NCBI GenBank assembly: GCA_016789955.1
Contig: JAEUPB010000092.1
Span: 1-52,723 of the forward strand
Origin: Rubrivivax sp.
Lineage (GTDB): Bacteria; Pseudomonadota; Gammaproteobacteria; Burkholderiales; Burkholderiaceae_C
Direction: 5' to 3'
DNA: 52,723 nt
Positions 10,944-48,838 of this stretch are shown here, piece after piece. The notes under the pieces are model-generated. The model searched no databases and was not told the origin of the DNA. It saw only the letters and a list, made by a program, of their open reading frames with translations. A program made the position numbers and the translations under genes. The first letter of the stretch is position 1. Each line of letters begins with the position of its first letter.

Positions 10944-13413
10944 GCAGCTCGCGCACCTGCGTGGCGCTGAGCGGGCGGCCGAGCAGGTAGCCCTGTCCGA
11001 TGGTCGCGCCGAGCGTGCGCAGCTGCGCCAGCTGCTCGTGCGTCTCGATGCCCTCGGCCACCACCTGCTTGCCCAGCGAGCGGCCGAGCGAGATCACGGT
11101 GCGCACGATCTCGAGGTTCTTGGCGCTCTTCTGCATGCCGATGACGAAGCTGCGATCGATCTTCAGGCAGTCGAAGGGCAGCGTGCTGAGGTAGGCGAGC
11201 GACGAGTAGCCGGTGCCGAAGTCGTCGATGCCGATCTTCACGCCCTGCGCGACGAGCGCATCGATCGAGCGCATCGCCAGCTCGCGATGCTCCATCAGCG
11301 TGCTCTCGGTGATCTCGAGCACGAGCCGCCCGGCGGGCAGCCCGTGGCGCTGCAGCACCCTGCCGACGTGCGGCACGAACGGCGCGCGCGCCAGGTCCTT
11401 GCCCGAGACGTTGACGTGCATCACCAGGTCGCCGCAGCCCTGGTGCGCCGCGCGCCAGGCCGCCAGCTGGCGCACCGCCTCGTCGACGGCCCAGGCGGTC
11501 AGCGAGTCGATGCAGCCGGTCTCCTCGGCCAGCGCGATGAACACGCCCGGGCTGATCACGCCGCGCTGCGGGTGCGTCCAGCGTGCCAGCGCCTCGAAGC
11601 CGTCGAGCCGGTGCGGGTCCAGCCGGTACAGCGGCTGGAACGCCAGCGAAAGCTGGCCGTCGCCGATCGCGCGGCGCAGGTCGGTCTCCAGCTGCAGCTT
11701 CTGCCCGATCTGCTCGCGCATGCTGATGTCGAAGATCGCCAGGCGCCCCTTGCCGTCGGCCTTGGCGCGGTACATCGCCACGTCGGCGTCGCGCAGCATC
11801 TCGTCGGGCAGGCGGTAGCCCATGTCGCTGTAGGTCACGCCGAGGCTGGCCGCGGTGCACAGCTCGGTGCCGTTGATCGTCACGGGCTTCTCGAGCGCCG
11901 CCTGCAGCCGCTGCGACAGGCGCAGCACCGCTTCGCCATCGCCGGACTGCTCGACGAGGATCGCGAACTCGTCGCCGCCCAGCCTGGCCACCAGGTCCGG
12001 CGGCCGCACGCAGGCCGCGAGCCGCCGCGCCACCTCCTTCAGCAGCTCGTCGCCGGCCGGGTGGCCGAGGGTGTCGTTGACGATCTTGAAGCGGTCGAGG
12101 TCGAGCACCATCAGCGCGAAGCGGTAGCGGCGGTCGGTGCGGCTGTGCTCCACAGCCACCTGCAGCCGCTCCTGGAAGCAGTTGCGGTTGGCCAGGTCGG
12201 TGAGGCTGTCGTGGTAGGCGATGTGGTGCAGCTCGCCTTCGGCGCGTCGGCGCGACGTGATGTCGTGCACCTGGAAGATCAGCCCCGGCGCCGCGCCGTC
12301 GGCGTGCGGCTGCGGGTCGTCGAACTGCGCGCAGTGCAGCGAGACCCAGATCTCCTGCCGCTCGACGCCCAGGCAGCGCAGCTCGATCGAGAACGCCTCC
12401 TCGCGCGCGGCCAGCACCGCATCGACGTGGCGCTGCAGCAGCGCGGCGTCTCCCGCGTTGAGCAGCCGGGCGAAAGGCTGGCCGAGCAGCTGCATCTCTC
12501 CGGCTCCGATGAGCCGGCACAGCGACTGGTTGACCTGGCTCACGCGCCCGTCGGCACCGACGATGGCCATGCCGATCGAGGCCTGCGTGAAGGCGCTGTG
12601 GAAGCGCTTCTGGTTCTGTGCCGACTCCTGCTCGGCGGTGCGCACGCGCGCGTCCTGCGCGGCGGCCTCGGCCGCCTGCTGGCGGAAGTGCGCCCGCAGC
12701 CAGGCCAGCGACAGCCCGAGCATCGCCACCGCCACGACGATCATCGCGCGGCCGTGCTGCTGCTCCTGCAGCGAGAGCATGCCGGCCAGCGCCGCCGCGG
12801 CGAGGTACATCGCGCCCACCCAGCTGCTGCTGGCGAGCCAGTCGCGCCAGCGCAGCGGGCGGCCCGACTTCAGGCACAGCACCCGCATCAGCGGCGCGGA
12901 GCCGGCCACGAGGTAGATGAGCGCGGCGCCGGCGAGCGCGGCGAGCTCCGCCGCCGCGGCCGGCAGCGCGTCGCCGGCCTCGGCCTTGAAGGCCTGGAAG
13001 AAGGTGCCTGCCAACAGCATCGCGGCAGCGGCGCCGGCCGGAGTGACGATGCGGCTGCTCACCCGCGTGCTCATCCTCCACGCGCCGAGCGCGCCCTCGG
13101 CGGCGGCGCACATCACGGCCGCCGCCGGGCCGTACAGCGCCAGCACCAGGAAGATCAGGAAGTCGCCCGCCGCGAACGACAGCTTGCTGCGCGGGAAGTG
13201 GATCGGAAACGCAGCGGCCACCAGCACCAGCAGCGTCCATCCGGCCAGCTGCCAGGCATCGGCCGCGCCGAGTTGCGACAGCTCGGCCGATGCACATCCG
13301 AGAGCGAGGGCGCCCGCCGCGACGACGCGGCCCCAGTGCTGCGCCGCGGCGTCGTTGTAGTCGTGCAGGTGACGCTGGCGGAACTCTCGCCAGGGCGTGT
13401 TGTCGGAGACCAT
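10915..13413 (-). CDS. Membrane-bound PAS-GGDEF-EAL cyclic-di-GMP enzyme
   Basis: This 832-residue protein starts with about eight hydrophobic segments (residues 30-240), then a short coiled coil, a PAS domain (about 265-390), a GGDEF domain and an EAL domain. The diguanylate cyclase motif is intact (GGDEF at 479-483), and RPPD lies five residues before it, matching the RxxD product-inhibition site. The phosphodiesterase side is also intact: FEALARW (Glu607), HVNVSGKDL, EITEST, DDFGTGYSSL, KIDRSF and VAEGIET. Both activities are therefore possible, as in many dual-domain proteins. It would set local c-di-GMP levels at the membrane in response to a PAS-bound or membrane signal. Its start lies 67 bases short of the stop codon of the upstream subtilase gene. 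Confidence 0.93.
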   Translation of the reverse strand: MVSDNTPWREFRQRHLHDYNDAAAQHWGRVVAAGALALGCASAELSQLGAADAWQLAGWTLLVLVAAAFPIHFPRSKLSFAAGDFLIFLVLALYGPAAAVMCAAAEGALGAWRMSTRVSSRIVTPAGAAAAMLLAGTFFQAFKAEAGDALPAAAAELAALAGAALIYLVAGSAPLMRVLCLKSGRPLRWRDWLASSSWVGAMYLAAAALAGMLSLQEQQHGRAMIVVAVAMLGLSLAWLRAHFRQQAAEAAAQDARVRTAEQESAQNQKRFHSAFTQASIGMAIVGADGRVSQVNQSLCRLIGAGEMQLLGQPFARLLNAGDAALLQRHVDAVLAAREEAFSIELRCLGVERQEIWVSLHCAQFDDPQPHADGAAPGLIFQVHDITSRRRAEGELHHIAYHDSLTDLANRNCFQERLQVAVEHSRTDRRYRFALMVLDLDRFKIVNDTLGHPAGDELLKEVARRLAACVRPPDLVARLGGDEFAILVEQSGDGEAVLRLSQRLQAALEKPVTINGTELCTAASLGVTYSDMGYRLPDEMLRDADVAMYRAKADGKGRLAIFDISMREQIGQKLQLETDLRRAIGDGQLSLAFQPLYRLDPHRLDGFEALARWTHPQRGVISPGVFIALAEETGCIDSLTAWAVDEAVRQLAAWRAAHQGCGDLVMHVNVSGKDLARAPFVPHVGRVLQRHGLPAGRLVLEITESTLMEHRELAMRSIDALVAQGVKIGIDDFGTGYSSLAYLSTLPFDCLKIDRSFVIGMQKSAKNLEIVRTVISLGRSLGKQVVAEGIETHEQLAQLRTLGATIGQGYLLGRPLSATQVRELLTEPLVAPA

Positions 13414-13480
13414 CCTTCGTTATCGGCAGCGGCGCGAGCGCCTTTCGGGGGAGGGCTGTCGCCGATGCACGCTCGGCAGC

Positions 13481-15709
13481 TCAGGGTTCGCCGCGAACGC
13501 TGCCGTCGCTGCCGGCGGCGGGGTCGCCGGACGTGGCCGACTCGCTGAGGATGAAGCCTTCGCTGAGGATGAACCCTTCGCTCAGGATGAAACCCTCGCT
13601 GAGGATGAAGCCCTCACTGAGGATGAAGCCCTCGCTCAGGATGAAACCTTCACTGAGGATGAAACCCTCGCTCAGGATGAAGCCTTCGCTGAGGATGAAG
13701 CCGCTGCCTGCGACGGCCAGCCCGGCCCACAGGGAGGTCGGCGCGAACAGCCCGGCGGCGTGCGCGGAAGGGGTGCCGTCGACGCGCACCACGCCGGCCG
13801 TCACCAGCGGCTGGCGGCCGCCCGTGACCCGGGTCTCGGTCACCGACCGCGGCCGCAGCATGGGGATGCCGCCGTCCACGGTGCTGCGCAGCACGACGCC
13901 GCGTGCCCAGGTCAGCCGCGGATCCCAGATCGGCTGGAACTGCGTGAACAGGGCGTCGCCGCTGAGCAGGTGGTTGCCGCCGGCGCCGACGAGGCGGCTC
14001 CAAGTGAAGGTCTGCCCGGCGACCGTGGACTGCGGCGTCGGGAACGCGCGCCCCCGCGCCAGGACCAGGTCGCCGGCCTTCAGGGATCCGGAGGCGAGGG
14101 CCGTGGCGATGTCGGTGCGCAGCGCGGTCGCGAGGCGCACCGCACCCTCCACGTTCAACTGGCCGGTGCCCTGCTGGAACAGGTTCGCACCCGGCACGGG
14201 CTGCGCCGTGTATTGCAGGATCGCCTTGACCAGCGGCGGCGTCAGGCCGGGGTTGGCCTGCAGTACAAGCGCCGCGGCGCCCGCCACGGCCGGCGCCGCC
14301 ACCGAGGTGCCGGAGAGCTGCATCAGGGCCTGGTTCGGCGCCTGCGACGCACCCGGCACCGCGGCGAGCTCCGGGTAGCGCGTGGCCAGCGTGTTCCAGC
14401 CCGCGCGCGACCCGAGCAGGTCGCTTCCGAGTGCCCCCAGGATGCGGTTGCCCGGCGCCACAAGGTCCGGCTTGACCAGGTTGTCGACCCACGCCGCCCC
14501 GTCCAGCGTCGTGCGGCCGCGCGTCGGGCCGCGCGAACTGAAGCCGGCCACGCTGTCATCGTGGCGAGCCGCGGTGGCGCGCGGGTTGCTGGCCCCGACG
14601 GTGATCACGGCGGGGTCATGTCCCGGCGACCCCACCGCCCCGTAGACCTCGCGACCGTCGGCGGTCTTGCCGGCGTTGCCCGCGGCGACCACGACGACGA
14701 GGCCGCTGGCCACGGCCGCGCGGGCCGCGCGCGCCAGCGGATCGACGAGGAACGAGTCGGTCGACGACGCCGCCAGGCTCATGTTGACCACGCGGATGCC
14801 CAGGCCCTGCGCGTTCTGGATCAGCCAGTCGAGCGCCGCGAGCACGTCGGCGAGTTGGCCGACGCCCTGGTCGTCGAGCACCCGAAGGTCGTACAGCGCG
14901 GCGTTGGGCGCGAGGCCCGACGCGTCGGGAGACTGGAAGTCGCCGCGGGCCCCGGCCACCGAGGCGACGTGCGTGCCGTGGCCGTAGACATCGGGGCGCA
15001 CGATGCGATTGACGGCGGACGCCAGCGGAACGGAGACGGCGGCATTGACCTTCAAGGCGGCCGGCGCGCTCGCGTCGACGCCGAGTGACCAGGCCGTGCC
15101 CTCGAGCCACTGGCCCACCTGGACGAGGTCGATCGTGCGTCGCACGCGGGTGAGGCCCAGCCCGTCCTGGAAGACCCGATGGCTGGCGGCGATGCCCGAG
15201 TCGAGCACCGCGATGCCGACCCCGCTGCCATCGAGCGAGCCGCTGTAGGCCGCGTCGGCCTCGACCTCGCCGGTCGTGGCCTGGAGCAGGCTGGCGGTGC
15301 GCGAAACCGTGCGGTTCGGTGCCAACGCGACCACGTCGGGGCGTGCGGCCAGGGCCTGCAGCTTCGATACCGGCACCGTGACGGCGGCCATGCGCATCGA
15401 CGGGAACACCTGTGTGATCGAGCCGCCGAGACCGAGCACGCCGCGTCGCAGATCCAGCAGGCTCGTGTCGCTGCTGCTGGAGACCACGATGACGCGCACC
15501 AGCGTCTGCCCGGCGCTCACGCGCAGCCAGGGCAGCAGCGGTGCTGAGCGGGTGCCCTGCACCAGCCCGGCCAGGTCGGCCGACAGCTTCGTCTGCACGG
15601 ATTGCGCGGTGACGACGTGCGGTACCAGCAACGCGGTCAGCAGGGTCGCGACTGCGAGCAGTGCGCGGCGGAGCCGGATCAGCGGCGCGCGAGAGACGAA
15701 CAGCGGCAT
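13481..15709 (-). CDS. Secreted subtilisin-family (S8) serine protease with C-terminal GFILSE repeats
   Basis: This 742-residue protein has a signal peptide (basic RLRR, then a hydrophobic run to VVTAQ), a propeptide-like region and a subtilase domain. The catalytic triad is visible as Asp170 (AVLDSGIA), His244 (GHGTHVASVAG) and Ser469 (LSGTSVAAP), with the oxyanion Asn in AAGNAGK. After the catalytic domain, about 150 residues of unknown fold lead to nine consecutive GFILSE units and a short tail. The start at 15709 is preferred over an in-frame TTG at 15727 because AAAGGA precedes it. That ribosome binding site lies inside a hairpin (see 15712-15739), which suggests translational control. 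The protease should act in the periplasm or outside the cell. Confidence 0.9.
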   Translation of the reverse strand: MPLFVSRAPLIRLRRALLAVATLLTALLVPHVVTAQSVQTKLSADLAGLVQGTRSAPLLPWLRVSAGQTLVRVIVVSSSSDTSLLDLRRGVLGLGGSITQVFPSMRMAAVTVPVSKLQALAARPDVVALAPNRTVSRTASLLQATTGEVEADAAYSGSLDGSGVGIAVLDSGIAASHRVFQDGLGLTRVRRTIDLVQVGQWLEGTAWSLGVDASAPAALKVNAAVSVPLASAVNRIVRPDVYGHGTHVASVAGARGDFQSPDASGLAPNAALYDLRVLDDQGVGQLADVLAALDWLIQNAQGLGIRVVNMSLAASSTDSFLVDPLARAARAAVASGLVVVVAAGNAGKTADGREVYGAVGSPGHDPAVITVGASNPRATAARHDDSVAGFSSRGPTRGRTTLDGAAWVDNLVKPDLVAPGNRILGALGSDLLGSRAGWNTLATRYPELAAVPGASQAPNQALMQLSGTSVAAPAVAGAAALVLQANPGLTPPLVKAILQYTAQPVPGANLFQQGTGQLNVEGAVRLATALRTDIATALASGSLKAGDLVLARGRAFPTPQSTVAGQTFTWSRLVGAGGNHLLSGDALFTQFQPIWDPRLTWARGVVLRSTVDGGIPMLRPRSVTETRVTGGRQPLVTAGVVRVDGTPSAHAAGLFAPTSLWAGLAVAGSGFILSEGFILSEGFILSEGFILSEGFILSEGFILSEGFILSEGFILSEGFILSESATSGDPAAGSDGSVRGEP
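13541..13702 (-). repeat. Nine tandem 18-bp units encoding GFILSE
   Basis: Nine uninterrupted 18-base units (162 bases) each encode Gly-Phe-Ile-Leu-Ser-Glu near the C-terminus of the subtilase. The units differ only at synonymous third positions (Gly, Leu, Ser and Glu codons vary), so the peptide sequence has been kept while the DNA diverged. This argues for selection on the repeat rather than very recent slippage. It is not a CRISPR array: there are no spacers and the frame is coding. Confidence 0.93.
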
Positions 15710-39112: not shown

Positions 39113-40315
39113 ATGTCGGGTACGCGTAGGGGATGGGCGCTGGTCGCCGCGGCGGCGCTGACAGCGCTGGCGGCATGCAGCAAGCCGGGCAGCGACTCCG
39201 CCGGCGCGGCCAAGGGCACGCCTGCTTCAGCGCCGGCTGCAGGCAGCGCGAAGGCCGCGACGGTGCTGCTGCTGGCCCTCGAGGACGTGGCCACCTTGCA
39301 ACCCGCCTCGCGTTCGCAAGGCCCGGTGATCACCGGTTCGATCCAGCCCGAGAAGCGCGCCGATCTGCGCGCCGAGGTGTCGGCGGTGGTGCTGCAGGTG
39401 CACAAGGAGAACGGCGAGCCGGTCAGGCGCGGCGACCTGCTGGTGACGCTGGACGCCACGACGATCCGCGACAACCTCGCGTCGGCGCGAGAGTCCGAGC
39501 GCGCGGCGGCGCAGGCGCTGGAGCAGGCCGAGCGCAGCCTGCAGCGCCAGCGCATGCTGCAGGCGCAGGGCATGACCTCGCAACAGGGGCTGGAGGACGC
39601 GGAGATGCGCCGCAACAGCGCGCAGAGCGAGCACCTCGCCGCCAAGGCGCGCGTGGCCAGCGCCGCGCAGCAGCTGGCCCGCACCGAGGTGCGCGCGCCG
39701 TTCGACGGCGTGGTCAGCGAGAAGCGGGCCTCGGCCGGCGACACCGCTCAGGTCGGCAAGGAGCTGCTGAAGGTCATCGACCCGCGCAGCATGCGCTTCG
39801 AGGGCCTGGTGTCGGCCGACCGCATCCACGAGGTGAAGGTCGGGCAGAAGGTGGCCTTTCGCGTCAACGGCTACCCGGGCGTCGACTTCGCCGGCCAGAT
39901 CCGGCGCGTCGACGCGGCGGCCAACGCCACGACGCGGCAGCTCGAGGTGCTGGTGGCCTTCGCCGGCGGCGAGCTGCCGAAGGTGGCGGGCCTGTATGCC
40001 GAAGGCCGCATCGAGAGCGGCACCGTGCAGGTGCTCGCACTGCCCGAGTCGGCGATCCAGCGTGCGGGCGACGTGGCCTCGGCCTGGAGGATCGACGGCC
40101 CGCGCGTCAAGCGCGTGGCGCTGCAACTCGGCGAGCGCGACGAGCGCAGCGGCGACGTGGAGATCAAGGCCGGCCTGGCCGCCGGCGACCGCTACCTGCG
40201 CCGCCCCGGCGCGACGCTCGTCGACGGCCAGTCGGTCGAGTGGATGAAGCCGGCCGCTCCGGCCGCGGCCGCCTCGGCCGTGGTATCCGCCGCGTCCGCG
40301 CCGGCGGCGAAGTAG
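39113..40315 (+). CDS. RND efflux periplasmic adaptor (membrane fusion) lipoprotein
   Basis: This 400-residue protein has a lipoprotein signal (ALTALAACSKPGS, LAAC lipobox), a lipoyl/barrel-sandwich half-motif (EVSAVVLQVHKENGEPVRRGD), an alpha-hairpin (about residues 125-185), the matching second half (TEVRAPFDGVVSEKRASAGD), then a beta-barrel and membrane-proximal domain. It would link an inner-membrane RND pump to an outer-membrane channel. GGAGGA lies eight bases before the ATG at 39113. The permease gene follows after 20 bases but is disrupted, and no outer-membrane factor gene is in the window. Confidence 0.92.
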   Translation: MSGTRRGWALVAAAALTALAACSKPGSDSAGAAKGTPASAPAAGSAKAATVLLLALEDVATLQPASRSQGPVITGSIQPEKRADLRAEVSAVVLQVHKENGEPVRRGDLLVTLDATTIRDNLASARESERAAAQALEQAERSLQRQRMLQAQGMTSQQGLEDAEMRRNSAQSEHLAAKARVASAAQQLARTEVRAPFDGVVSEKRASAGDTAQVGKELLKVIDPRSMRFEGLVSADRIHEVKVGQKVAFRVNGYPGVDFAGQIRRVDAAANATTRQLEVLVAFAGGELPKVAGLYAEGRIESGTVQVLALPESAIQRAGDVASAWRIDGPRVKRVALQLGERDERSGDVEIKAGLAAGDRYLRRPGATLVDGQSVEWMKPAAPAAAASAVVSAASAPAAK

Positions 40316-40335
40316 CCCGCCGCAGGGAGCCCGAC

Positions 40336-43300
40336 ATGTTCCTCTCCGATTTCAGCGTGCGCCGGCCGGTGGCCACCGTGGCCATCATCATCGCGCTGAT
40401 GGCCCTGGGCCTGATGGCGCTGAAGAACCTGCGCGTCAACCAGATCCCCGACGTCGACCAGCCCATCCTGACGGTGACGATCCCGTATCCCGGCGCGTCA
40501 CCCGAGACCGTCGAGCGCGAGGTCATCAACCGCATCGAGAAGGCGCTGCAGAGCATCCCCGGCGTCGACCAGTCGCGCGCCACCGCCAGCGAGGGCAGCG
40601 CGCGCTTCGTGCTGATCTTCAACTTCGACCGCAACATGGTCGAGGCCGCCGACGAGGTGCGCAACGCGATCGGCTCGGTGCGGCACAAGCTGCCGGTGGA
40701 GATCCGCGAGCCGGTGCTGCAGCGGCTGGACCCGAACGCGCAGCCCATCATGCAGATGGCGCTGTCATCGCGCACGTAGAGCCACGCCGAGATCTCGCGC
40801 ATGGCCGAGGACCAGCTCGCCGACCGCTTCCGCTCGATCCGCGGCGTGGCCACGGTCAACGTCGGCGGGGCGCTGCGCCGCGAGCTGACGGTGCTGCTGC
40901 GCGCCGAGAAGCTGCGCGAGTTCAACGTCTCGGTGGCCGAGGTGGTGAACGCGCTGCGGGCGCAGAACGCCACCGCGCCGGTGGGCAAGGTGCGCGGCGC
41001 GCTCGAGGACCAGAGCATCCGCCTGGTGGGGCGCATCGAGTCGCCTTCCGAGTTCGAGCAGGTGGTGATCAAGCGGCGCGGCAACGAGATCGTGCGGCTC
41101 GGGCAGGTGGCCGGCATCGCCGACGGTTTCGCCGAGGTCAGCAGCTTCTCGCTGCGCAACGGCAACCCGAACGTGGGCCTCTCGGTCACGCGTTCGCGCG
41201 ACGCCAGCACCGTCTCGGTGGCGGCCGAGGTGCGCAAGCTCGTCGGCGAGCTGAACGCGCAGCTGCCCGAGGGCACGCGCCTCGAGGTCACGCAGGACGG
41301 CGGCAAGGACGCGCAGACGAGCCTGAACAATGTCATCGAGGCGCTGATCTTCGGCGCCGGCCTGACGGTGCTCGTCGTCTACGTGTTCCTGAATTCGTGG
41401 CGCTCCACGCTGATCACCGCTCTCTCGCTGCCGACCTCGGTGGTGGCGGCCTTCATCGCCGTGTGGGCCTGCGGCTTCACGCTGAACTTCATGAGCCTGC
41501 TGGGGCTGTCGCTGGCCATCGGCGTGCTGATCGACGACGCCGTCGTCGTGCGCGAGAACATCGTTCGCCACATGGAGCGCGGCGAAGACCGCCGCACCGC
41601 GGCGTTGAACGGCACCGCCGAGATCGGCCTGGCGGTGGCGGCGACGACCTTCTCGATCGTCGCGGTGTTCATCCCGGTGGCCTTCATGCCCGGCGTCTCG
41701 GGCGAGTGGTTCCGCCCGTTCGGGCTGACGGTGGTGGCCTCGGTGCTCGTGAGCCTGTTCATCTCGTTCACGCTGGACCCGATGCTGTCGGCCTACTGGG
41801 GCGATCCGCCCGGCCATCACGACCACCGGAAGCGCGGCCTCTCACGGCTGCTGCAGCGCTTCAACACCTGGTTCGACCACCAGGCCGACCGCTACGGCCG
41901 CGTCATCGCGTGGGCGCTGCACCACCGGCGCTGGATGGCGGCCTTCGCCGTGGCCAGCTTCGTCGGCGCGATCGCGCTGCAGGCGAAGTTCGGCGGCTCG
42001 AGCTTCCTGCCGGTGGCCGACAACGGCATGCTCGCCATCGACGTGCGCACGCCGTCGTCGAGCAGCCTCGACTATGCGCGGATGAAGGTGGAGGCGGCGG
42101 CCACGCTGGCCCGCACCCTCCCCGAGACCAAGGCCACCAACAGCCTCGTGAACCCCGGTGGCGGCCGCGTCTACGTCGACCTCGGCAAGGCCGGCGAGCG
42201 GCGCCGCTCGGCCATCGAGATCGGGGTGGAACTGCGGGGCAAGGTGTCTCGGCTGGTCGGCGCCGAGTACGTGGTGCTCGACGACTTCAACATGGGCGTG
42301 CAGAAGCCGGTGCAGATCCGCTTCAACGGCACCGACTCGCGCAGGCTGCTGGAGATCGCCACGCGCTTCATGGAGCAGATGCGCCAGGTGCCCGGCGCCG
42401 TGGACGTGGGCCTCTCGGAGCAGGACCCGCAGGACGAACTCAAGATCGAGCTCGACCGGGGCCTGGCGAACAACCTCGGCATCTCGGCCGCCGACGCGGC
42501 GCAGGCGCTGCGCGTGGCCTTCGCCGGCGTGGAGGTGGGCGATTGGATCGACCCCAGCGGCGAGGCGCGCGACGTGGCCGTGCGGCTGCATCCCGACGAT
42601 CGCGTCGACGCCAGCAACATCGAGCGGCTGCCGGTGGCCGTGGCCGGCGGCACGCGCATGGTGCCGCTGGAGCAGATCGCCACGGTGACGATGGGCAAGG
42701 GCCCGTCGCAGATCCAGCATGCCGACGGCAAGCGCACGATCTCGGTCTCCGCCAACGCCCAGGGCCGATCGCCCGGCGAGGTGACCGCCGATGCGATGAA
42801 GATCGCGCAGGCGATCCCGTTCCCGCCGGGCTACGGGGTCGAGCTGGCCGGCTCCAGCCGCGACCAGCAGCAGGTGTTCGGCGCGATGTTCTCGGCGCTG
42901 CTGATGGGCGTGGCGCTGATGTACCTGATCCTCGTCGTGCAGTTCGGCTCGTTCACGGCGCCGCTGCCGGTGATGATGTCGCTGCCGCTGTCCCTGATCG
43001 GCGTGGTCGCCGCGCTGCTGCTGACCAAAGGCACGCTGAACCTGATGAGCTTCATCGGCGTGATCATGCTGATGGGCCTGGTGGCCAAGAACGCGATCCT
43101 GCTGCTCGACGCGGCGCGCGTGCTGGAACACGAAGGCATGCCGCGCGAGGACGCGCTGATGGCCGCGGGGCGCAAGCGGCTGCGCCCGATCCTGATGACC
43201 ACCTTCGCGCTGGTGGCCGGCATGCTGCCGGTGGCCATCGGCGTGGGCGACGGCGCCGAGTTCTACCGCCCGATGGCGGTGGCCATCATCGGCGGCACGA

Positions 43301-43551
43301 TCACGTCGACGCTGCTGACGTTGCTGATCATCCCGAGCTTCTACGACTCGGTGGAGATCGCGCGCGACGGCGCGATCGCGAAGTTCCATCGCCGCCGCGA
43401 GCGCTGGGGCGTGGCGGTGGGCTTTGCGATGACGTTGGTCGAAGCGCTGATGGCGCTGCTGCTGGTGCGCTGGCTGTGGCGGCTGTCGGCGCGCCTCGGT
43501 CGGCTCGTCGTCGCACGCGGCACGCGATCGTCGGTGGGTTTGGCTGATTGA
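40336..43551 (+). pseudogene. RND efflux permease (HAE1 type) interrupted by an in-frame TAG
   Basis: The full frame of 1072 codons has the length and motifs of an RND drug-efflux permease, but codon 148 (40777-40779) is TAG. The upstream part (40336-40776, 147 residues) holds TM1 and the start of the porter domain. The downstream frame continues without shift, resuming SHAEISRMAEDQLADRF, and has an internal ATG at 40801. Later motifs look intact: GVLIDDAVVVREN (TM4 proton-relay Asp pair) and GLVAKNAILLLD (TM10 Lys). Because there is one stop and no other decay, this is either a recent nonsense mutation or a sequencing error. Readthrough or reinitiation at 40801 would yield a protein lacking TM1, which is unlikely to work. 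Confidence 0.85.
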
Positions 43552-43569: not shown

Positions 43570-43601
43570 GCGGCCTGACGGATGAGGTCAGCGCGGGCCG
43601 C
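43570..43601. terminator. Stem-loop between convergent RND and lipoprotein genes
   Basis: GCGGCC-TGAC (43570-43579) pairs with GTCA (43587-43590) and, after a five-base bulge, GGCCGC (43596-43601). It lies just after the RND stop and runs over the lipoprotein stop codon, where a shared terminator would be expected. There is no T-run and the stem is interrupted, so this is tentative. Confidence 0.28.
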
Positions 43602-44025
43602 GTGGGCTCAGGAAGAATCCGAACTCGCGCGACATCACATCGGCAATGGCAAGGCCATAGTCCGGGGCACCGCGTTTCACGGTGGCGCCGTCGAGCCCGC
43701 CCGCGGCGTCTCGGAACTTGGTCGTCAGCGTGGGCCTGCTGCTCACCACCTGCCAGGCATGGCGCAGCCGCTCGGCGTCGGCGCCGCCAGCGGTAACGGT
43801 CAGCTCGCCGCCGCCGTCGGCACGCAGCAGCAGCCGGCCGACCTCGCTGAAGCCCCCGGCGGGCATCTGCATCCGAATGATGTACTCGGCAGAGGGTGCG
43901 GCCGGGCCCGGGGCCTGGCCGGTCGCAGCGGCACAGCCGGCGAGCAGCAGGATCATGCCCGCCGTCGCCGCTGCGACAACCTGCCGCCGCGGCCCCTGCG
44001 CGTCAGCGATCGTGGTCATGGTCAT
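43588..44025 (-). CDS. Small lipoprotein, paralogue of the 107-residue protein at 47147
   Basis: This 145-residue product has a lipoprotein signal peptide (ATAGMILLLAGC lipobox) and a C-terminal domain of about 75 residues. That domain resembles the protein encoded at 47147-47470: both have LTVTA, then LRHAW or LRAAW, a DGA turn, and the end motifs SREFGFFLSP here and SRRYGFFASP there. The start at 44025 is preceded by AAGGA eight bases upstream and overlaps the 3' end of the large metallopeptidase-type gene by 23 bases, so the two are translationally linked. The function is unknown. I infer that it is an envelope-anchored version of its soluble paralogue. Confidence 0.72.
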   Translation of the reverse strand: MTMTTIADAQGPRRQVVAAATAGMILLLAGCAAATGQAPGPAAPSAEYIIRMQMPAGGFSEVGRLLLRADGGGELTVTAGGADAERLRHAWQVVSSRPTLTTKFRDAAGGLDGATVKRGAPDYGLAIADVMSREFGFFLSPRGPR

Positions 44026-47000
44026 CACCTGAGTCCTTGGGCGACGTGCCGGGTGCCGGCGTACCGCTCGGGGACGGCGCCGGTGCCGGGCCCGGCGCCG
44101 GGGTGGGCGGGAACCGCTTGGCCATCTCGTTCTGCAGCTCGGAGCCCATCGCCCGCGAGTGCGCCTCCTCTGGCGACGTCGAATAGACCTTCTTGAACTC
44201 CGAGTTGTGCTGCTTGCGGTAGTCCTCGCACAGCGCGAGCGCCTTGGCCTGCTCGTAGCTCGGGTCGGTGGCCGGCAGCGAGCCGTCGCGGTAGCCCTTG
44301 ATCAGCCGCGCCTGTTCCTTGTGGCCTACCTCGTGCGCGACGGTATCGAGCAGTTCGTCGAACCTCGCGTGCGCGTCGTCGTGCGCGTTGACCTCGATCT
44401 TGTCGTTCTTGGCCGAGTACTTGCCGTACTTCGGCGGTGAGTATTCGCCCTTGTCCTTCAGCGCCTGGCGTTCAGCATCCGACAGGTTGTAGGTATCGAT
44501 CTCGGGGACGCCGACATTCCAGCCTTCCTGGCCCGCAGGGATCGTCGTCAGGTACTTGATCGCCTCCTTCTTTTCATCCGGCGTCATCGTGCTCCAGTTC
44601 TTGCGGTACTCGAGCACCTTGGGATCTTCGGCGTACGACTTGATGATGCGGTCGCGGACCGGCTTGTCGAGCTTGTCGAAGTTCTCGTCGATCGACGGGT
44701 TGGCCCAGATCTTGTTGATCGCGTCGGTATCCTTGGCCGTGACGGCGCCCTTCATCATCTCCTCGATGAGGATGTTGCGCGCTTCCGTCGGCATCTTGGC
44801 CAGCTCGCCCTTCTTGTCGAGCTCATCGATGATCTTCTGCGCCGCGGCCTTCTTCTCTGCCTCGGTGCCGGCGGCACCCATCTTGTTCTTGACGTCCTCG
44901 ACCTGCTTGAGCTCCGACATCAAGCGGGGCAGGTTGTCGAGGTCCTTCTGGGCCTGTTGCAGCGCGGCATCGTCGTTGCCGGACTTGGCGGCGCGAATCG
45001 ACTGCACCAGCTTGTCGACCTGGCCCTTCATGTTGGACTTGGTGTCCTTCATGCCGGCCAGTTCGGTCTCGATCGGCGGCAGTTTCGCGTCGATCGCCGA
45101 GCGGATCGCCGTGCGCGCCGTCTCGGCCTCCTGCTCGAAGGCTTCGGCCTCGCCCTTGAGCTTCTGCACGCTGGCGAGCGCGGCATCGAAGTCACCTTGC
45201 GCGGCCTGCTGGGTCATCGCGTCGCGGCTGGCGACGAGCGCGGCCTTCTTCGGCTCCATCGACGTCAGCTTGCAGCCGTCGACCTTCTGCATCAGCGCCT
45301 CGACCTCCGCGGCGGCTGCTTCGTATTCCTGCTTCTTCTGGTCGATCTCGGACTTGGCCTTCTCGTAGGAGTCGACCTGGGTGGTCAGGTCCTGCAACTG
45401 CATCATCGCCTGGTCGTAGTCGCCGGCCTGCGCCGAGGCCTCCATCGCACCCTGCGCCGCGGTGATCTCCTGGAGCAGCGGCTCGATCTTGGAGTACGCC
45501 GGGTCGCTCTGCGAGATGGCCTGGATGCGAGGCTGCAATGCCGCCAGCGCCGTCTCGTACTCCTGCTTCTTCTGATCGATCTCGGACTTGGCCCGCTCGT
45601 AGGAGTCGACCTGGGTGGTCAGGTCCTGCAACTGCGTCATCGCCTGGTCGTAGTCGCCGGCCTGCGCCGAGGCCTCCATCGTGGTCTGCGCCTGCGTGAT
45701 CTCCTGCAACTGCGGCTCGATCCTGGAGTACGCCGGGTCGCTCTGGGAGATCGCCTGGATGCGCGGCTGCAACGTCGCAAGCGCCGTCTCGTACTCCTGC
45801 TTCTTCGCGTCGATCTCTTGCTTGGCCTGCTCGATCGTGTCGAGCCGGGTCGAGAGATCCGTGGCCAGCGTCAGCGCCTGCGCGTAGTCGTCGGCCTGCG
45901 CCGCCGCTTCCATCTGCGTCTGCACGCCCGAGAGCTCCTGCACCATCGGCTCGAGCTTGGCGTACTGCGGATCGGACATCGATACCGCCTGGATGCGCGG
46001 CTGCAGTTGCGCCAGCAGCGTCTCGTACTCCTGCTTCTGCTGCACGAGTTCGTCGTGCTTGCGCTGGAACTCCTCGCGCTTGCCCTTGGAGTCGGCCAGC
46101 GACTGGTTGGCGCCGGCGTAGTCCCCCGCGTCAGCCTTGGGCTGCGCCTGCGCCTGCGCCTCGCTGATCGCCGCCCAGTCCGCATCCAGCGACTGGAACG
46201 CCGGCTCGGGCTGCGGCGTGGATTGCTGCTCCAGCCCCTGGCTGTCGGCCAGATACTGCTGGCGGGCCGGGTCGTTGGCGAGCCGATCGAGCTCGTCGGC
46301 CTTGGCCTGGACCTGCTCCATGCCCTGCACGCCGCCGACGAAGTCCTTCGCATCGGCCTTGCCCTTGGCCTCCTGCAGCGCCGCATCGGCCTCGCCGGCC
46401 TTGGCCGTCATCGGCTGCGAAGGCCGGTCCACAGCCTTGAGCGATTCCAGCTTGGCCGTGTGCTCGGCCAGTCGCTGTTCGTACTGCGGCTTGGCCTCCT
46501 TCTGCTTCGAGTACTCCTCGTACACCGGCTGCAGCGACGGCAGCAGGCCATCCAACGCCGAGCACGCCTCGCGCCAGCGGCGCTCGTTGGTGTGGCCGCG
46601 GATCGACTCGGCCTGGCCGCGCAGCGTGCCGGCCTGCGCGTCTTCCCAGGACTCGAGTTCCTCGACGTGGTGCACCGCCTCGTCGAAGGAGGCCTGCTTG
46701 GAGTCCCACTCGCTCTTGGCCGCCTCCGTCTCCTGCCGAAAGGTGGTCACCTCGGCGCAGAGGCTGCGCGCCTCGCCCAGCACGGCGTCGATGGCGCCCT
46801 GGGCCTTGGAAGGATCATTCCGGTCGATCGCGCCCAGCGCGCCCTGGAACTTGCCGTACAGCGCGTCGCGGCGCGAAGCGTAGCCCGAGTGCTTGGAGGC
46901 CTCGGCGTTGGCCGAGGTGTACTGCAGATGCTCGTTGATCTTGCCCTGCTCGGCTTCGAAGGCGGCCTTGAACTCGTTGGCCTGCTGATCCGAACCTTGC

Positions 47001-47110
47001 GGCTGGGTCTGCTGGCCGCCGCCGCCAGCATCGGACGGCGCAGGGTTTCCACCGCCCGGGTTGCCCACCCCCCATTGGTTCTTCAGGCCCGTGTTGCTCG
47101 GGTTGCCCAT
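44003..47110 (-). CDS. Large helical repeat protein with C-terminal HEVGH metallopeptidase motif
   Basis: This 1035-residue protein has no signal peptide. Residues 1-45 are Gly/Asn/Gln-rich and disordered. About residues 50-750 are charged helices, predicted coiled coil, including 78-residue tandem repeats (residues 359-592, with a divergent fourth unit to about 670). The C-terminal 170 residues hold a zinc peptidase signature, TVAHEVGHKEQ (His926-Glu927-x-x-His930). YSTSPEEAHSRAMG, about 51 residues later, offers Glu981/Glu982 as a third ligand. A Pro-rich tail ends in DDHDHDR. GGGAG lies about seven bases before the ATG. The metallopeptidase-on-a-stalk layout is reminiscent of effector or toxin proteins, but no delivery motif was found. 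Family unknown to me. Confidence 0.75.
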   Translation of the reverse strand: MGNPSNTGLKNQWGVGNPGGGNPAPSDAGGGGQQTQPQGSDQQANEFKAAFEAEQGKINEHLQYTSANAEASKHSGYASRRDALYGKFQGALGAIDRNDPSKAQGAIDAVLGEARSLCAEVTTFRQETEAAKSEWDSKQASFDEAVHHVEELESWEDAQAGTLRGQAESIRGHTNERRWREACSALDGLLPSLQPVYEEYSKQKEAKPQYEQRLAEHTAKLESLKAVDRPSQPMTAKAGEADAALQEAKGKADAKDFVGGVQGMEQVQAKADELDRLANDPARQQYLADSQGLEQQSTPQPEPAFQSLDADWAAISEAQAQAQPKADAGDYAGANQSLADSKGKREEFQRKHDELVQQKQEYETLLAQLQPRIQAVSMSDPQYAKLEPMVQELSGVQTQMEAAAQADDYAQALTLATDLSTRLDTIEQAKQEIDAKKQEYETALATLQPRIQAISQSDPAYSRIEPQLQEITQAQTTMEASAQAGDYDQAMTQLQDLTTQVDSYERAKSEIDQKKQEYETALAALQPRIQAISQSDPAYSKIEPLLQEITAAQGAMEASAQAGDYDQAMMQLQDLTTQVDSYEKAKSEIDQKKQEYEAAAAEVEALMQKVDGCKLTSMEPKKAALVASRDAMTQQAAQGDFDAALASVQKLKGEAEAFEQEAETARTAIRSAIDAKLPPIETELAGMKDTKSNMKGQVDKLVQSIRAAKSGNDDAALQQAQKDLDNLPRLMSELKQVEDVKNKMGAAGTEAEKKAAAQKIIDELDKKGELAKMPTEARNILIEEMMKGAVTAKDTDAINKIWANPSIDENFDKLDKPVRDRIIKSYAEDPKVLEYRKNWSTMTPDEKKEAIKYLTTIPAGQEGWNVGVPEIDTYNLSDAERQALKDKGEYSPPKYGKYSAKNDKIEVNAHDDAHARFDELLDTVAHEVGHKEQARLIKGYRDGSLPATDPSYEQAKALALCEDYRKQHNSEFKKVYSTSPEEAHSRAMGSELQNEMAKRFPPTPAPGPAPAPSPSGTPAPGTSPKDSGDDHDHDR
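45335..46036 (-). repeat. Three 234-bp tandem repeats (78-residue helical unit) plus a degenerate fourth
   Basis: Units at 46036-45803, 45802-45569 and 45568-45335 each begin KQEYET and contain LQPRIQA, SDP-Y, a Glu-Pro turn and D-YDQA or similar. The second and third are nearly identical in both protein and DNA, which points to recent duplication. The first is clearly related but diverged. A fourth unit (45334-45101) keeps only the KQEYE start and general pattern. Each unit looks like a pair of long helices. Confidence 0.85.
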
Positions 47111-47146
47111 CGCGAGCTCCCTTCGTCGTGGAAGAGGGGACGAACG

Positions 47147-47470
47147 TCAGCCGTACTCGGCCGGCGACGCGAAGAAGCCGTAGCGGCGCGACAGCAGGTC
47201 GGCCACGGCGCGCGGGTACTCCGGCGTGCCGGGCCTCACGTCGGCGCCGTCGATCAGGAACGTGTCGCCGGATTCGTCCTGCGGGTCCGGCTCGGACCAC
47301 TTCATGGCGATCACCGGCAGGGCCCGCACGGCGTTCCAGGCGGCGCGCAGTTCGTCTGCCATCGCGCCTTGCGCCGTCACGGTCAGCGTCGGTTCTGCGG
47401 CGTCCGGGAAGTCGATTTCGCCGACCCGGGTCACCTGGCCGTCGGCGAGCTTCTTGATGAGCAGCTTCAA
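47147..47470 (-). CDS. 107-residue hypothetical protein, TTG start, paralogue of the lipoprotein at 43588
   Basis: This small protein has no signal peptide. It begins MKLLIKKLADGQVTRVGEID, is beta-rich in its first half, and ends DLLSRRYGFFASPAEYG. No ATG or GTG fits; the TTG at 47470 has GGAG eight bases upstream and is the best start. The second half resembles the lipoprotein at 43588-44025. It lies 36 bases before the large metallopeptidase-type gene, which is therefore flanked by the two paralogues. Possible roles include binding partner, chaperone or inhibitor of the large protein; none is shown. Confidence 0.68.
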   Translation of the reverse strand: MKLLIKKLADGQVTRVGEIDFPDAAEPTLTVTAQGAMADELRAAWNAVRALPVIAMKWSEPDPQDESGDTFLIDGADVRPGTPEYPRAVADLLSRRYGFFASPAEYG

Positions 47471-47557
47471 GCGATGATCTCCACGTTGGAGTAGTGTGTC
47501 GTCGCTCGGAGAGCCGGTGCGACGATCCGTCAGCCTTGCGCGCCGGTTTCGACGGCG

Positions 47558-48838
47558 TCAGGCCAGCGCCTTGCGCAGGTCCGCCAGCGCCTTGGTCACC
47601 GGTGCATGCACCTGGACGTCGGCGAACTCCTTCTCGTCGATGGCACGCATCAGCGCGTTGTTCGCCACGAAGCGCTGGTAGCGTTCGAGCACCTCGGCCG
47701 CGGTGCCCGCGAGCGCCTCGAGCTTCTTCTGGTTGCGCAGCGGCGTGGAGGCGTACTGGTCGAGCGTGTCGCGCAGTTCGTCGTCGAGGTTGTCGAGGAT
47801 GTCGTCGATGGCCTTGCAGCCGGCCACCACCTTCGGCCATTGCTGCGCGTCGGCCATGTAGGCCATCTTGGCGCCGTCCTTGACCTTCTCCAGGTCCTGC
47901 TCCGCACGGACCTTGGCCGCAACCCAGGCAGCGCGGGCGCGCTTGAACTCCCGGCGGCGGTCCTCCAGGACCTGTTGCTCCTGCTGGGCCTGGGCCGCCT
48001 GCGCGGCGCCGGCCGCAGGGGCTTGGGGGGCGGCTTGGGAGGCGGCCGCACCGCTTGCAGCAACCGCTGCAGCGCCGGACGCATCCGCACCGGCTTCGGG
48101 GGCACCGCCCTCGTCGTCCTCGTCGACCTCCTGCTCCTGCCCGTTGAGCAAGACGGCGAACTTCTTGTAGAGATTGATCTTGTTCTGCTTCAGGTACAGG
48201 CGCAGCTGCTTGGCCGCGCCTGGGACGTTGGGGCAGTCCTCCAGGCTGATCATCAGCTTCGTGGCCTCGCCCGGGGCGGCCTGCAACCGGCCGAACACCA
48301 CCTTGGCGCCATCGCTGCGTTCCTTGGCCTTGCGCCCCATCGACTTGGGCATGCCGCGCACGCCCAACGCCAACGCGCGGACTTCGGCCTTGTTGCTGAC
48401 GACGAAGGCGAACGGCAGGGCCTGCCGCGTCGCGCGCTTGAGGGTCGTGCGATGCAGCTCGGGATCGAACAGCTTCTCGCCGGCGGTCTCTTCGTCCTCG
48501 TCGTCACCGCCGTCGTCCTCCTTGGCCTTCTCCTTCTCGGCGGCCTTCTCGGCGGCCTTCGCGGCCGCGGCCTTCGCCTTGGCCATCTCGGCCTGAACCT
48601 TCTTGACCTCGGCCTCGGCCATCGATTCCAGCGTGTCCAGGTCCTTCAGCAGGTCCTTCTGGCCCTTGAGCTCGGCACGGGCCTTCGCCAGCGCCGGCTT
48701 CAGCGTCGCTAGGGCTGCGACGAGCTTCTCGTCCTCGGTGGACTCGACGAGCGCGAGTGCCTTCTCGAGTTCGGCGCCCTTCACGGTCTTCGGCTTGACG
48801 CCGATCCACCACTTCTTCTTCAGTTCGACTTTGCTCAT
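47558..48838 (-). CDS. Charged 426-residue hypothetical protein with helical ends
   Basis: This 426-residue protein is the first gene of the four-gene set. Residues 1-120 form a Lys/Ala/Glu helix after MSKVELKKKWWIGVKPK, ending in an acidic patch (EDDGGDDEDEE). About residues 125-240 look globular (PFAFVVSNKAEVRALALGV, LMISLEDCPNVPGAA). A second acidic and Ala-rich linker follows, and residues 290-426 are helical. GGAG lies eight bases before the ATG at 48838. No signal peptide or known motif is seen. The charged stalks at both ends suggest a structural or adaptor role alongside the large coiled-coil protein, which is inference from shared composition and adjacency. Confidence 0.7.
   Translation of the reverse strand: MSKVELKKKWWIGVKPKTVKGAELEKALALVESTEDEKLVAALATLKPALAKARAELKGQKDLLKDLDTLESMAEAEVKKVQAEMAKAKAAAAKAAEKAAEKEKAKEDDGGDDEDEETAGEKLFDPELHRTTLKRATRQALPFAFVVSNKAEVRALALGVRGMPKSMGRKAKERSDGAKVVFGRLQAAPGEATKLMISLEDCPNVPGAAKQLRLYLKQNKINLYKKFAVLLNGQEQEVDEDDEGGAPEAGADASGAAAVAASGAAASQAAPQAPAAGAAQAAQAQQEQQVLEDRRREFKRARAAWVAAKVRAEQDLEKVKDGAKMAYMADAQQWPKVVAGCKAIDDILDNLDDELRDTLDQYASTPLRNQKKLEALAGTAAEVLERYQRFVANNALMRAIDEKEFADVQVHAPVTKALADLRKALA

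What the first reader, a model, noticed from the sequence alone, without database searches (positions are those of the whole stretch)
43588..48838. Unassigned four-gene set built around a repeat-stalk metallopeptidase
Four genes on one strand encode a 426-residue charged helical protein, a 107-residue protein, a 1035-residue coiled-coil protein with HEVGH, and a lipoprotein related to the 107-residue protein. I recognise none of the full-length families. A long helical stalk with a C-terminal zinc peptidase, plus two small paralogues (one soluble, one lipid-anchored), suggests an effector-like enzyme with dedicated small partners. No VgrG, PAAR, Rhs, contractile-tail or two-partner secretion gene is nearby, so the delivery route, if any, is unknown.
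Basis: partly seen in the sequence, partly recalled or inferred. Interest (0 to 1): 0.72.

Follow-up and report, generated by a model that had tools for sequence, protein, structure and literature searches.

The report
Type VI-linked metallopeptidase toxin operon
Four neighbouring genes look like a toxin cassette for the bacterial 'harpoon' (type VI secretion system): a carrier protein from an uncatalogued family, a long-stalked zinc-protease toxin, and two related small proteins that probably protect the producer.

Summary
In detail: four minus-strand genes (426, 107, 1035 and 146 aa), HEVGH at residue 926, and the 107-aa protein and lipoprotein are paralogues. Profile libraries give only coiled-coil noise. 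The 426-aa protein ('A') belongs to a multicopy family: a profile gives 13 A matches in this genome, two of them inside a large type VI secretion cluster on contig C93, between TssM and TagF plus a second, fused VipA-VipB-like sheath protein. All 14 A-positive genomes tested carry a canonical VipB plus a divergent second VipB; 5 of 66 A-negative family members carry a divergent second one. A genes are often followed by large genes (25 of 42 against 24 of 213 other genes); partners include an M91 peptidase and, in another layout, a patatin with a CesT chaperone. Best reading: A is a carrier or adaptor, the 1035-aa protein a type VI cargo metallopeptidase, the 107-aa/lipoprotein pair cytosolic/periplasmic immunity. 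Delivery, toxicity and immunity are inferred; the last three genes have no relatives in the other A loci.

The parts
47558..48838 (-). A: 426-aa putative carrier/adaptor of the type VI-linked A family
   Evidence: leave-out profile of 32 full-length non-window members finds it at E 4.4e-23
48122..48838 (-). A N-terminal domain (residues 1-239): helical charged part with conserved Trp, then a domain of about 120 residues
   Evidence: Alignments A2 and A5; profile of 8 own copies without the window finds it at E 3.6e-8
47561..47995 (-). A C-terminal helical domain (about residues 282-426)
   Evidence: 31% identity to the C113 copy over residues 250-426, E 6.4e-12; profile of 7 other C-termini E 1.4e-16
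47147..47470 (-). 107-aa soluble small protein, putative cytosolic immunity (or chaperone)
   Evidence: paralogue of the lipoprotein; model mean pLDDT 84.7, no convincing fold match
44003..47110 (-). 1035-aa stalked putative toxin
45125..46492 (-). six helical repeat units of about 75 residues (residues 207-662)
   Evidence: the window-only repeat profile hits 3 of 685 other proteins, all A or A-linked; none in 3 shuffled sets
44111..44773 (-). C-terminal putative zincin metallopeptidase domain (residues 780-1000)
   Evidence: HEVGH and, by eye, a later Glu; no PDB or Pfam homologue; model unreliable (pLDDT 54.6)
44321..44335 (-). HEVGH motif (residues 926-930)
43588..44028 (-). lipoprotein paralogue, putative periplasmic immunity

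Best explanation
The four genes form a type VI secretion (T6SS) effector operon outside the main cluster. A (426 aa) is a carrier or adaptor that couples cargo to the T6SS. The 1035-aa protein is its cargo: a helical repeat stalk carrying a C-terminal zinc metallopeptidase. The 107-aa protein neutralises the toxin in the producer's cytosol, and the lipid-anchored paralogue neutralises toxin that arrives in the periplasm from sister cells. Shown: the anatomy, the A family, its presence inside a T6SS cluster, its co-occurrence with T6SS sheath genes, its frequent pairing with large genes, some of them toxin-like, and the shared stalk repeat. Inferred: that A carries cargo, that the 1035-aa protein is secreted and toxic, that the small proteins are immunity proteins, and the place of action.
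For: A copies at C93:69802 and C93:73171 lie between TssM and TagF/fused sheath, in a cluster with Pfam matches for VipA, Hcp, TssF, VgrG, DUF4280, DotU, IcmF, kinase and TagF. On the Rhizobacter GL140_4 contig L042 and in G1018 (L096) A lies on the same stretch as T6SS genes. 8 of 14 A-positive genomes have an A within 30 kb of the divergent sheath gene. Sheath association 14 of 14 against 5 of 66, Fisher p 7.7e-12. A followed within 250 bp by a same-strand gene of 500 aa or more: 25 of 42 against 24 of 213, p 9e-11. Partners include Patatin, Peptidase_M91 and a CesT chaperone and a group of eight related proteins, of which the five aligned have HExxH. In the 686-protein set the window's stalk repeat recurs only in A or A-linked proteins. 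Two published parallels, read as passages: RIX proteins as first gene of adaptor-effector-immunity operons (PMC10435454); VgrG2b/Tpe1, an HEXXH toxin acting in the periplasm with envelope-located, in some bacteria predicted lipoprotein, immunity (PMC6899460).
Against: The window copy is a divergent A member (24% identity to the reference row), and VipB was found only on another contig. The 1035-aa, 107-aa and lipoprotein sequences have no blastp relatives in the other A loci, so the pairing rests on one genome. The peptidase fold is unproven. The suspected N-terminal cargo motif is weak (8 of 56 against 3 of 138, post hoc; one of the 8 looks by eye like an SMC protein) and the window toxin was not among the matches. 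In the patatin layout the effector precedes A and has its own CesT chaperone. 5 of 66 A-negative genomes have a divergent second VipB without a detected A. In 6 of 14 A-positive genomes no A was seen within 30 kb of the divergent sheath gene. Most partners scanned have no recognisable toxin domain (7 of 10; the L012 pair).
Confidence: 0.6

Rival explanations
1. A is a T6SS accessory or assembly protein that also recurs beside effectors; it does not carry cargo, and the 1035-aa protein is loaded directly on Hcp or VgrG.
For: Two A copies sit inside the T6SS cluster, one of them only 246 aa long. Subthreshold matches to the NCBIfam T6SS family IglI_fam in 3 of 10 full-length members (best E 0.0054, 16.7 bits, cut-off 100).
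Against: 20 of 55 A proteins lack the common C-terminal domain and are 338 to 1483 aa long, which fits a delivery domain with variable extensions better; A pairs with unrelated large partners.
Confidence: 0.18
2. The 1035-aa protein is a T6SS effector aimed at eukaryotic predators; the 107-aa protein is a chaperone and the lipoprotein a surface accessory.
For: Another A copy of this genome is paired with a Peptidase_M91 protein; that M91 is the family of NleD and HopH1 is recalled, and these act in animal and plant cells (PMC3482391, passages). A CesT chaperone lies between the patatin protein and A in L019.
Against: The 107-aa and lipoprotein sequences are paralogues placed in two compartments, which suits immunity better than chaperoning; the 107-aa protein has no Pfam match, CesT included, at E<=1.
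Confidence: 0.14
3. The set belongs to the upstream MoxR-DUF58-BatA genes as an envelope or chaperone module.
For: Same strand, about 216 bp downstream of BatA; a BatA match at E<=1e-60 is present in 72 of 80 genomes of the genus, own included, in a few of them only as a paralogue of about 55% identity.
Against: None of the four genes is found by tblastn (E<=1e-5), nor the A domains by profile, in the 8.5-9.5 kb downstream of BatA in 18 relatives examined (of 71 other genomes with a match).
Confidence: 0.03
4. Delivery by an extracellular contractile injection system (eCIS/PVC) rather than T6SS.
For: The motif reads HEVGHKEQ, like the HExxHxxQ of PVC metallopeptidases (PMC3482391, passages).
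Against: No Pfam match to that domain at E<=1; the A family is tied to T6SS genes. eCIS genes were not searched for in this genome.
Confidence: 0.05

Closest known systems
RIX-domain T6SS secreted adaptors and effectors (Vibrionaceae; PMC10435454)
   Same: Polymorphic N-terminal domain; sometimes the first gene of an operon with a cargo effector and immunity gene.
   Different: A has a long N-terminal region (about 240 residues) and was found here in relatives of Rhizobacter (Burkholderiales); no RIX profile was available to test sequence kinship; secretion untested.
MIX, FIX, PIX, WHIX delivery domains of T6SS effectors (passages; abstract)
   Same: Domains that mark T6SS cargo with variable toxins.
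   Different: A is mostly a separate gene next to the large partner; no sequence test against these domains was possible.
Tpe-Tpi family, VgrG2b-PA0261 (PMC6899460)
   Same: HExxH toxin with immunity on the periplasmic side, predicted lipoprotein in some bacteria.
   Different: Not fused to VgrG; carried on a repeat stalk; PDB sequence search with the domain listed no relative.
Tox-MPTase/PVC-metallopeptidase and M91/HopH1 toxin peptidases (PMC3482391)
   Same: HExxH at the C-terminus of a long modular protein.
   Different: No Pfam hit for the window domain.

Membership tests
A family (defined here) | N-terminal domain of about 240 residues | tested here: met
   Leave-out profile E 3.6e-8, full-length leave-out profile E 4.4e-23
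A family (defined here) | Encoded in or with a T6SS | tested here: met
   Family level. The window copy itself is an orphan; VipB matches only on C93
RIX-type adaptor-effector-immunity operon | Carrier gene first, then effector, then immunity | tested here: met
   Order A, 107 aa, 1035 aa, lipoprotein on one strand; the roles are inferred and the 107-aa gene intervenes
RIX domain | RIX sequence signature | not tested
   No RIX profile at hand
RIX-type adaptor | T6SS-dependent secretion | not testable with these tools
   Needs experiment
MIX/FIX/PIX/WHIX | Their sequence domains | not tested
   No dedicated profiles; Pfam and NCBIfam scans named no such domain
Tpe1/VgrG2b metallopeptidase | HExxH | tested here: met
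   HEVGH
Tpe1/VgrG2b metallopeptidase | Sequence relation to the solved VgrG2b domain | tested here: inconclusive
   PDB phmmer lists only one unrelated chain, E 0.28; single-sequence search, presence of the VgrG2b entry in the copy not checked
PVC/eCIS metallopeptidase (DUF4157) | Domain match | tested here: not met
   Not among Pfam hits at E<=1
Zincin metallopeptidase fold | Zincin fold around HExxH | tested here: inconclusive
   Model pLDDT 54.6, pTM 0.32; profile comparison with other A-linked peptidases aligns only the HExxH stretch

The most novel reading that the evidence does not exclude
A defines an undescribed class of T6SS-secreted polymorphic carrier that recruits interchangeable toxins, and it works with a dedicated second, divergent VipB-like sheath protein (fused VipA-VipB in the window's genome) that is present in all 14 A-positive genomes tested, so that this T6SS would have its own cargo-loading or second-tail module.
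Probability: 0.35. Interest if true: 0.8.

Novelty: new variant of a known kind. Interest (0 to 1): 0.62.

Why it matters
T6SS cargo toxins outside the main gene cluster are hard to recognise because they lack a universal signal. If A is a carrier, one profile picks out families of unannotated toxin operons in Burkholderiales relatives: 13 of 399 family members, 9 of 141 genera. It also supplies a test of how large stalked cargo is loaded, and raises the question of what the co-occurring second sheath protein does.

Tried and rejected
Searches that found nothing: the 107-aa protein in 60 relatives, the peptidase domain in 398 other genomes of the order, the 426-aa protein alone in 80 other genomes of the genus (only the own C113 copy appeared), plasmids by tblastn (426-aa, 1035-aa, peptidase domain, 107-aa, one A N-terminus), phages by tblastn (peptidase domain, the L012 A), viral contigs with A3. 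The single genome-contig scan used two short peptide patterns and gave one locus, so it is no measure of rarity. Order and phylum draws gave only own hits plus four weak ones, E 3.8e-4 to 9.2e-4, not counted as family members.

Coiled-coil matches of the 1035-aa protein (Ribosomal_L5 and others, SMC/Rad50-like, JetC, LmuB, a few PHROGs) were judged compositional and rejected. Toc34 (E 4.1e-4) likewise. IglI_fam is far below its cut-off. A shared N-terminal cargo motif was considered but is only suggestive.

Limits: at most 4, 6 or 7 candidates per genome were scored, so some A-negatives may be false. Genes of the fetched loci come from a home-made caller. Close relatives (such as G903, G1007, G1082) inflate counts, and L042 and L117 appear to be the same contig (same length and layout), so two of the 55 A proteins are counted twice; that G1166 is the Rhizobacter MAG rests on this. 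That G844-G910 (without G903) are A-negative follows from their numbering in the draw; most are not listed there by name. The first display of the BatA test hid matches under 40% identity; one search repeated it without that filter and with profiles, again with nothing.

Full report
Observation. The order on the minus strand is 426 aa, 107 aa, 1035 aa, lipoprotein, with short gaps and an overlap at the end. The small pair are paralogues. The stalk repeat is visible in DNA and protein. Pfam, NCBIfam, PHROGs and PADLOC give coiled-coil noise for the 1035-aa protein, a few weak matches for the 426-aa protein and the lipoprotein, and nothing for the 107-aa protein.

Finding the family. A search of 81 genomes of the genus with the 426-aa protein gave, besides itself, one weak relative on contig C113 of the same genome. 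That locus (L012) carries a 477-aa homologue, a 687-aa helical protein with a different C-terminus, and a 127-aa gene. A two-sequence profile then found many more copies. With an 11-sequence profile the genome has 13 matches, and one other species of the 80 others searched in the genus, G460, has two. Leave-out tests confirm that the window protein belongs: E 3.6e-8 with a profile of eight own copies and E 4.4e-23 with 32 full-length members, none from the window. No convincing Pfam match was found (best E about 0.005), and NCBIfam gives only weak hits.

Link to type VI secretion. VipB occurs only on contig C93. Gene calls there show one large cluster; Pfam confirms VipA, Hcp, TssF, VgrG, DUF4280 (PAAR-like, PMC5014421, passages), DotU-OmpA, IcmF, a protein kinase, TagF and a 620-aa protein with both VipA and VipB matches (ten proteins scanned); other core parts were named by eye or not checked. 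Two A genes lie in it. The Rhizobacter GL140_4 contig L042, found in the named collection (Burkholderiales), and G1018 (L096) show A beside T6SS genes too; in G1082, G1007 and G903 A lies on the same 19.5-kb stretch as a TssM relative. A family-level search found 13 of 399 genomes, 9 of 141 genera, with A, up to seven matches each with at most seven candidates scored. In 80 chosen genomes (14 A-positive, 66 A-negative from the same draw) all 14 positives have a canonical VipB and a divergent second one; among negatives 20 have any VipB and 5 (G869, G872, G894, G895, G909) a divergent second. In 8 of 14 genomes an A lies within 30 kb of the divergent sheath gene; in the other six none does, five of them because the two are on different contigs.

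Partners. Of 45 A proteins longer than 300 aa, 42 have a called gene downstream in the fetched stretch; 25 of these 42 have a same-strand gene of at least 500 aa within 250 bp, against 24 of 213 other genes of 300-800 aa in the same loci, window left out of the control (Fisher; relatives not removed). The window itself is not among the 25, because the 107-aa gene intervenes. Ten partners or neighbours were scanned with Pfam: one Patatin, one CesT chaperone, one Peptidase_M91 above cut-off, seven with nothing above cut-off; the two L012 neighbours also had nothing. Eight partners form one related group; the five of them aligned share HExxH and a conserved APGEWF motif. They do not align with the window peptidase beyond the HExxH stretch. 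The window's repeat profile, built from three of its own units, hits 3 of 685 other proteins, all A or A-linked (E 9.5e-5 to 1e-3), none in three shuffled sets. Of 55 A proteins (two counted twice, see limits), 25 have the common C-terminal domain, 20 are longer proteins without it, 10 are under 300 aa.

Accessory position. A BatA match is present in 72 of 80 genus genomes. I fetched 18 of the 71 others: none has any of the four genes downstream, and one (L161) keeps BatA facing the same RND transporter with other genes between. The set is therefore best read as an accessory insertion beside a conserved locus.

Mechanism. Carrier, stalked metallopeptidase, and an immunity pair in two compartments is the reading that best joins these facts, by analogy with RIX operons and VgrG2b-PA0261. 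The 107-aa model is fairly confident (pLDDT 84.7) but matches no solved fold convincingly. The peptidase domain could not be modelled. Secretion, toxicity and immunity are untested.

Novelty. The listings of nine library searches show no paper that I recognise as describing this family, but a family without a name cannot be searched by name, so this is weak evidence. I rate it a new variant of a known kind: polymorphic T6SS delivery systems.

Noticed in passing
window 39133-43551 (+): The RND efflux permease next to the set is read as two ORFs, by their coordinates in the same frame, separated by a stop (matches to ACR_tran positions 2-144 and 156-1018); interrupted gene or sequence error. A relative (L161) has a single 1070-aa ORF.
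   Followed up: no
L036:16985-18847 (+): 620-aa protein with both VipA and VipB Pfam matches, next to TagF; a divergent second VipB is present in all 14 A-positive genomes tested. Role unknown.
   Followed up: partly
L019:11587-11976 and 11987-14188 (-): Patatin-domain protein with an adjacent CesT-type (type III-like) chaperone beside an A gene; similar layouts, not scanned with Pfam, in L101, L104, L116.
   Followed up: partly
L020:9551-11170 (+): Peptidase_M91 protein directly after an A gene.
   Followed up: no
L013:7301-11160 (-): Two tandem A proteins with other C-termini, one ending in a region that looks OmpA-like by eye, near a kinase related to the T6SS kinase.
   Followed up: no
L061:3-4451 (-): A fused into a 1483-aa ORF in another species of the genus, with a gene nearby that looks by eye like a transposase.
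   Followed up: no
L064:2-6035 (-): Genes that look by eye like a two-partner secretion pair (1499 and 505 aa) beside the T6SS cluster.
   Followed up: no
L037:7669-7962 (-): 97-aa ORF with only the start of the A domain, perhaps a decayed copy.
   Followed up: no
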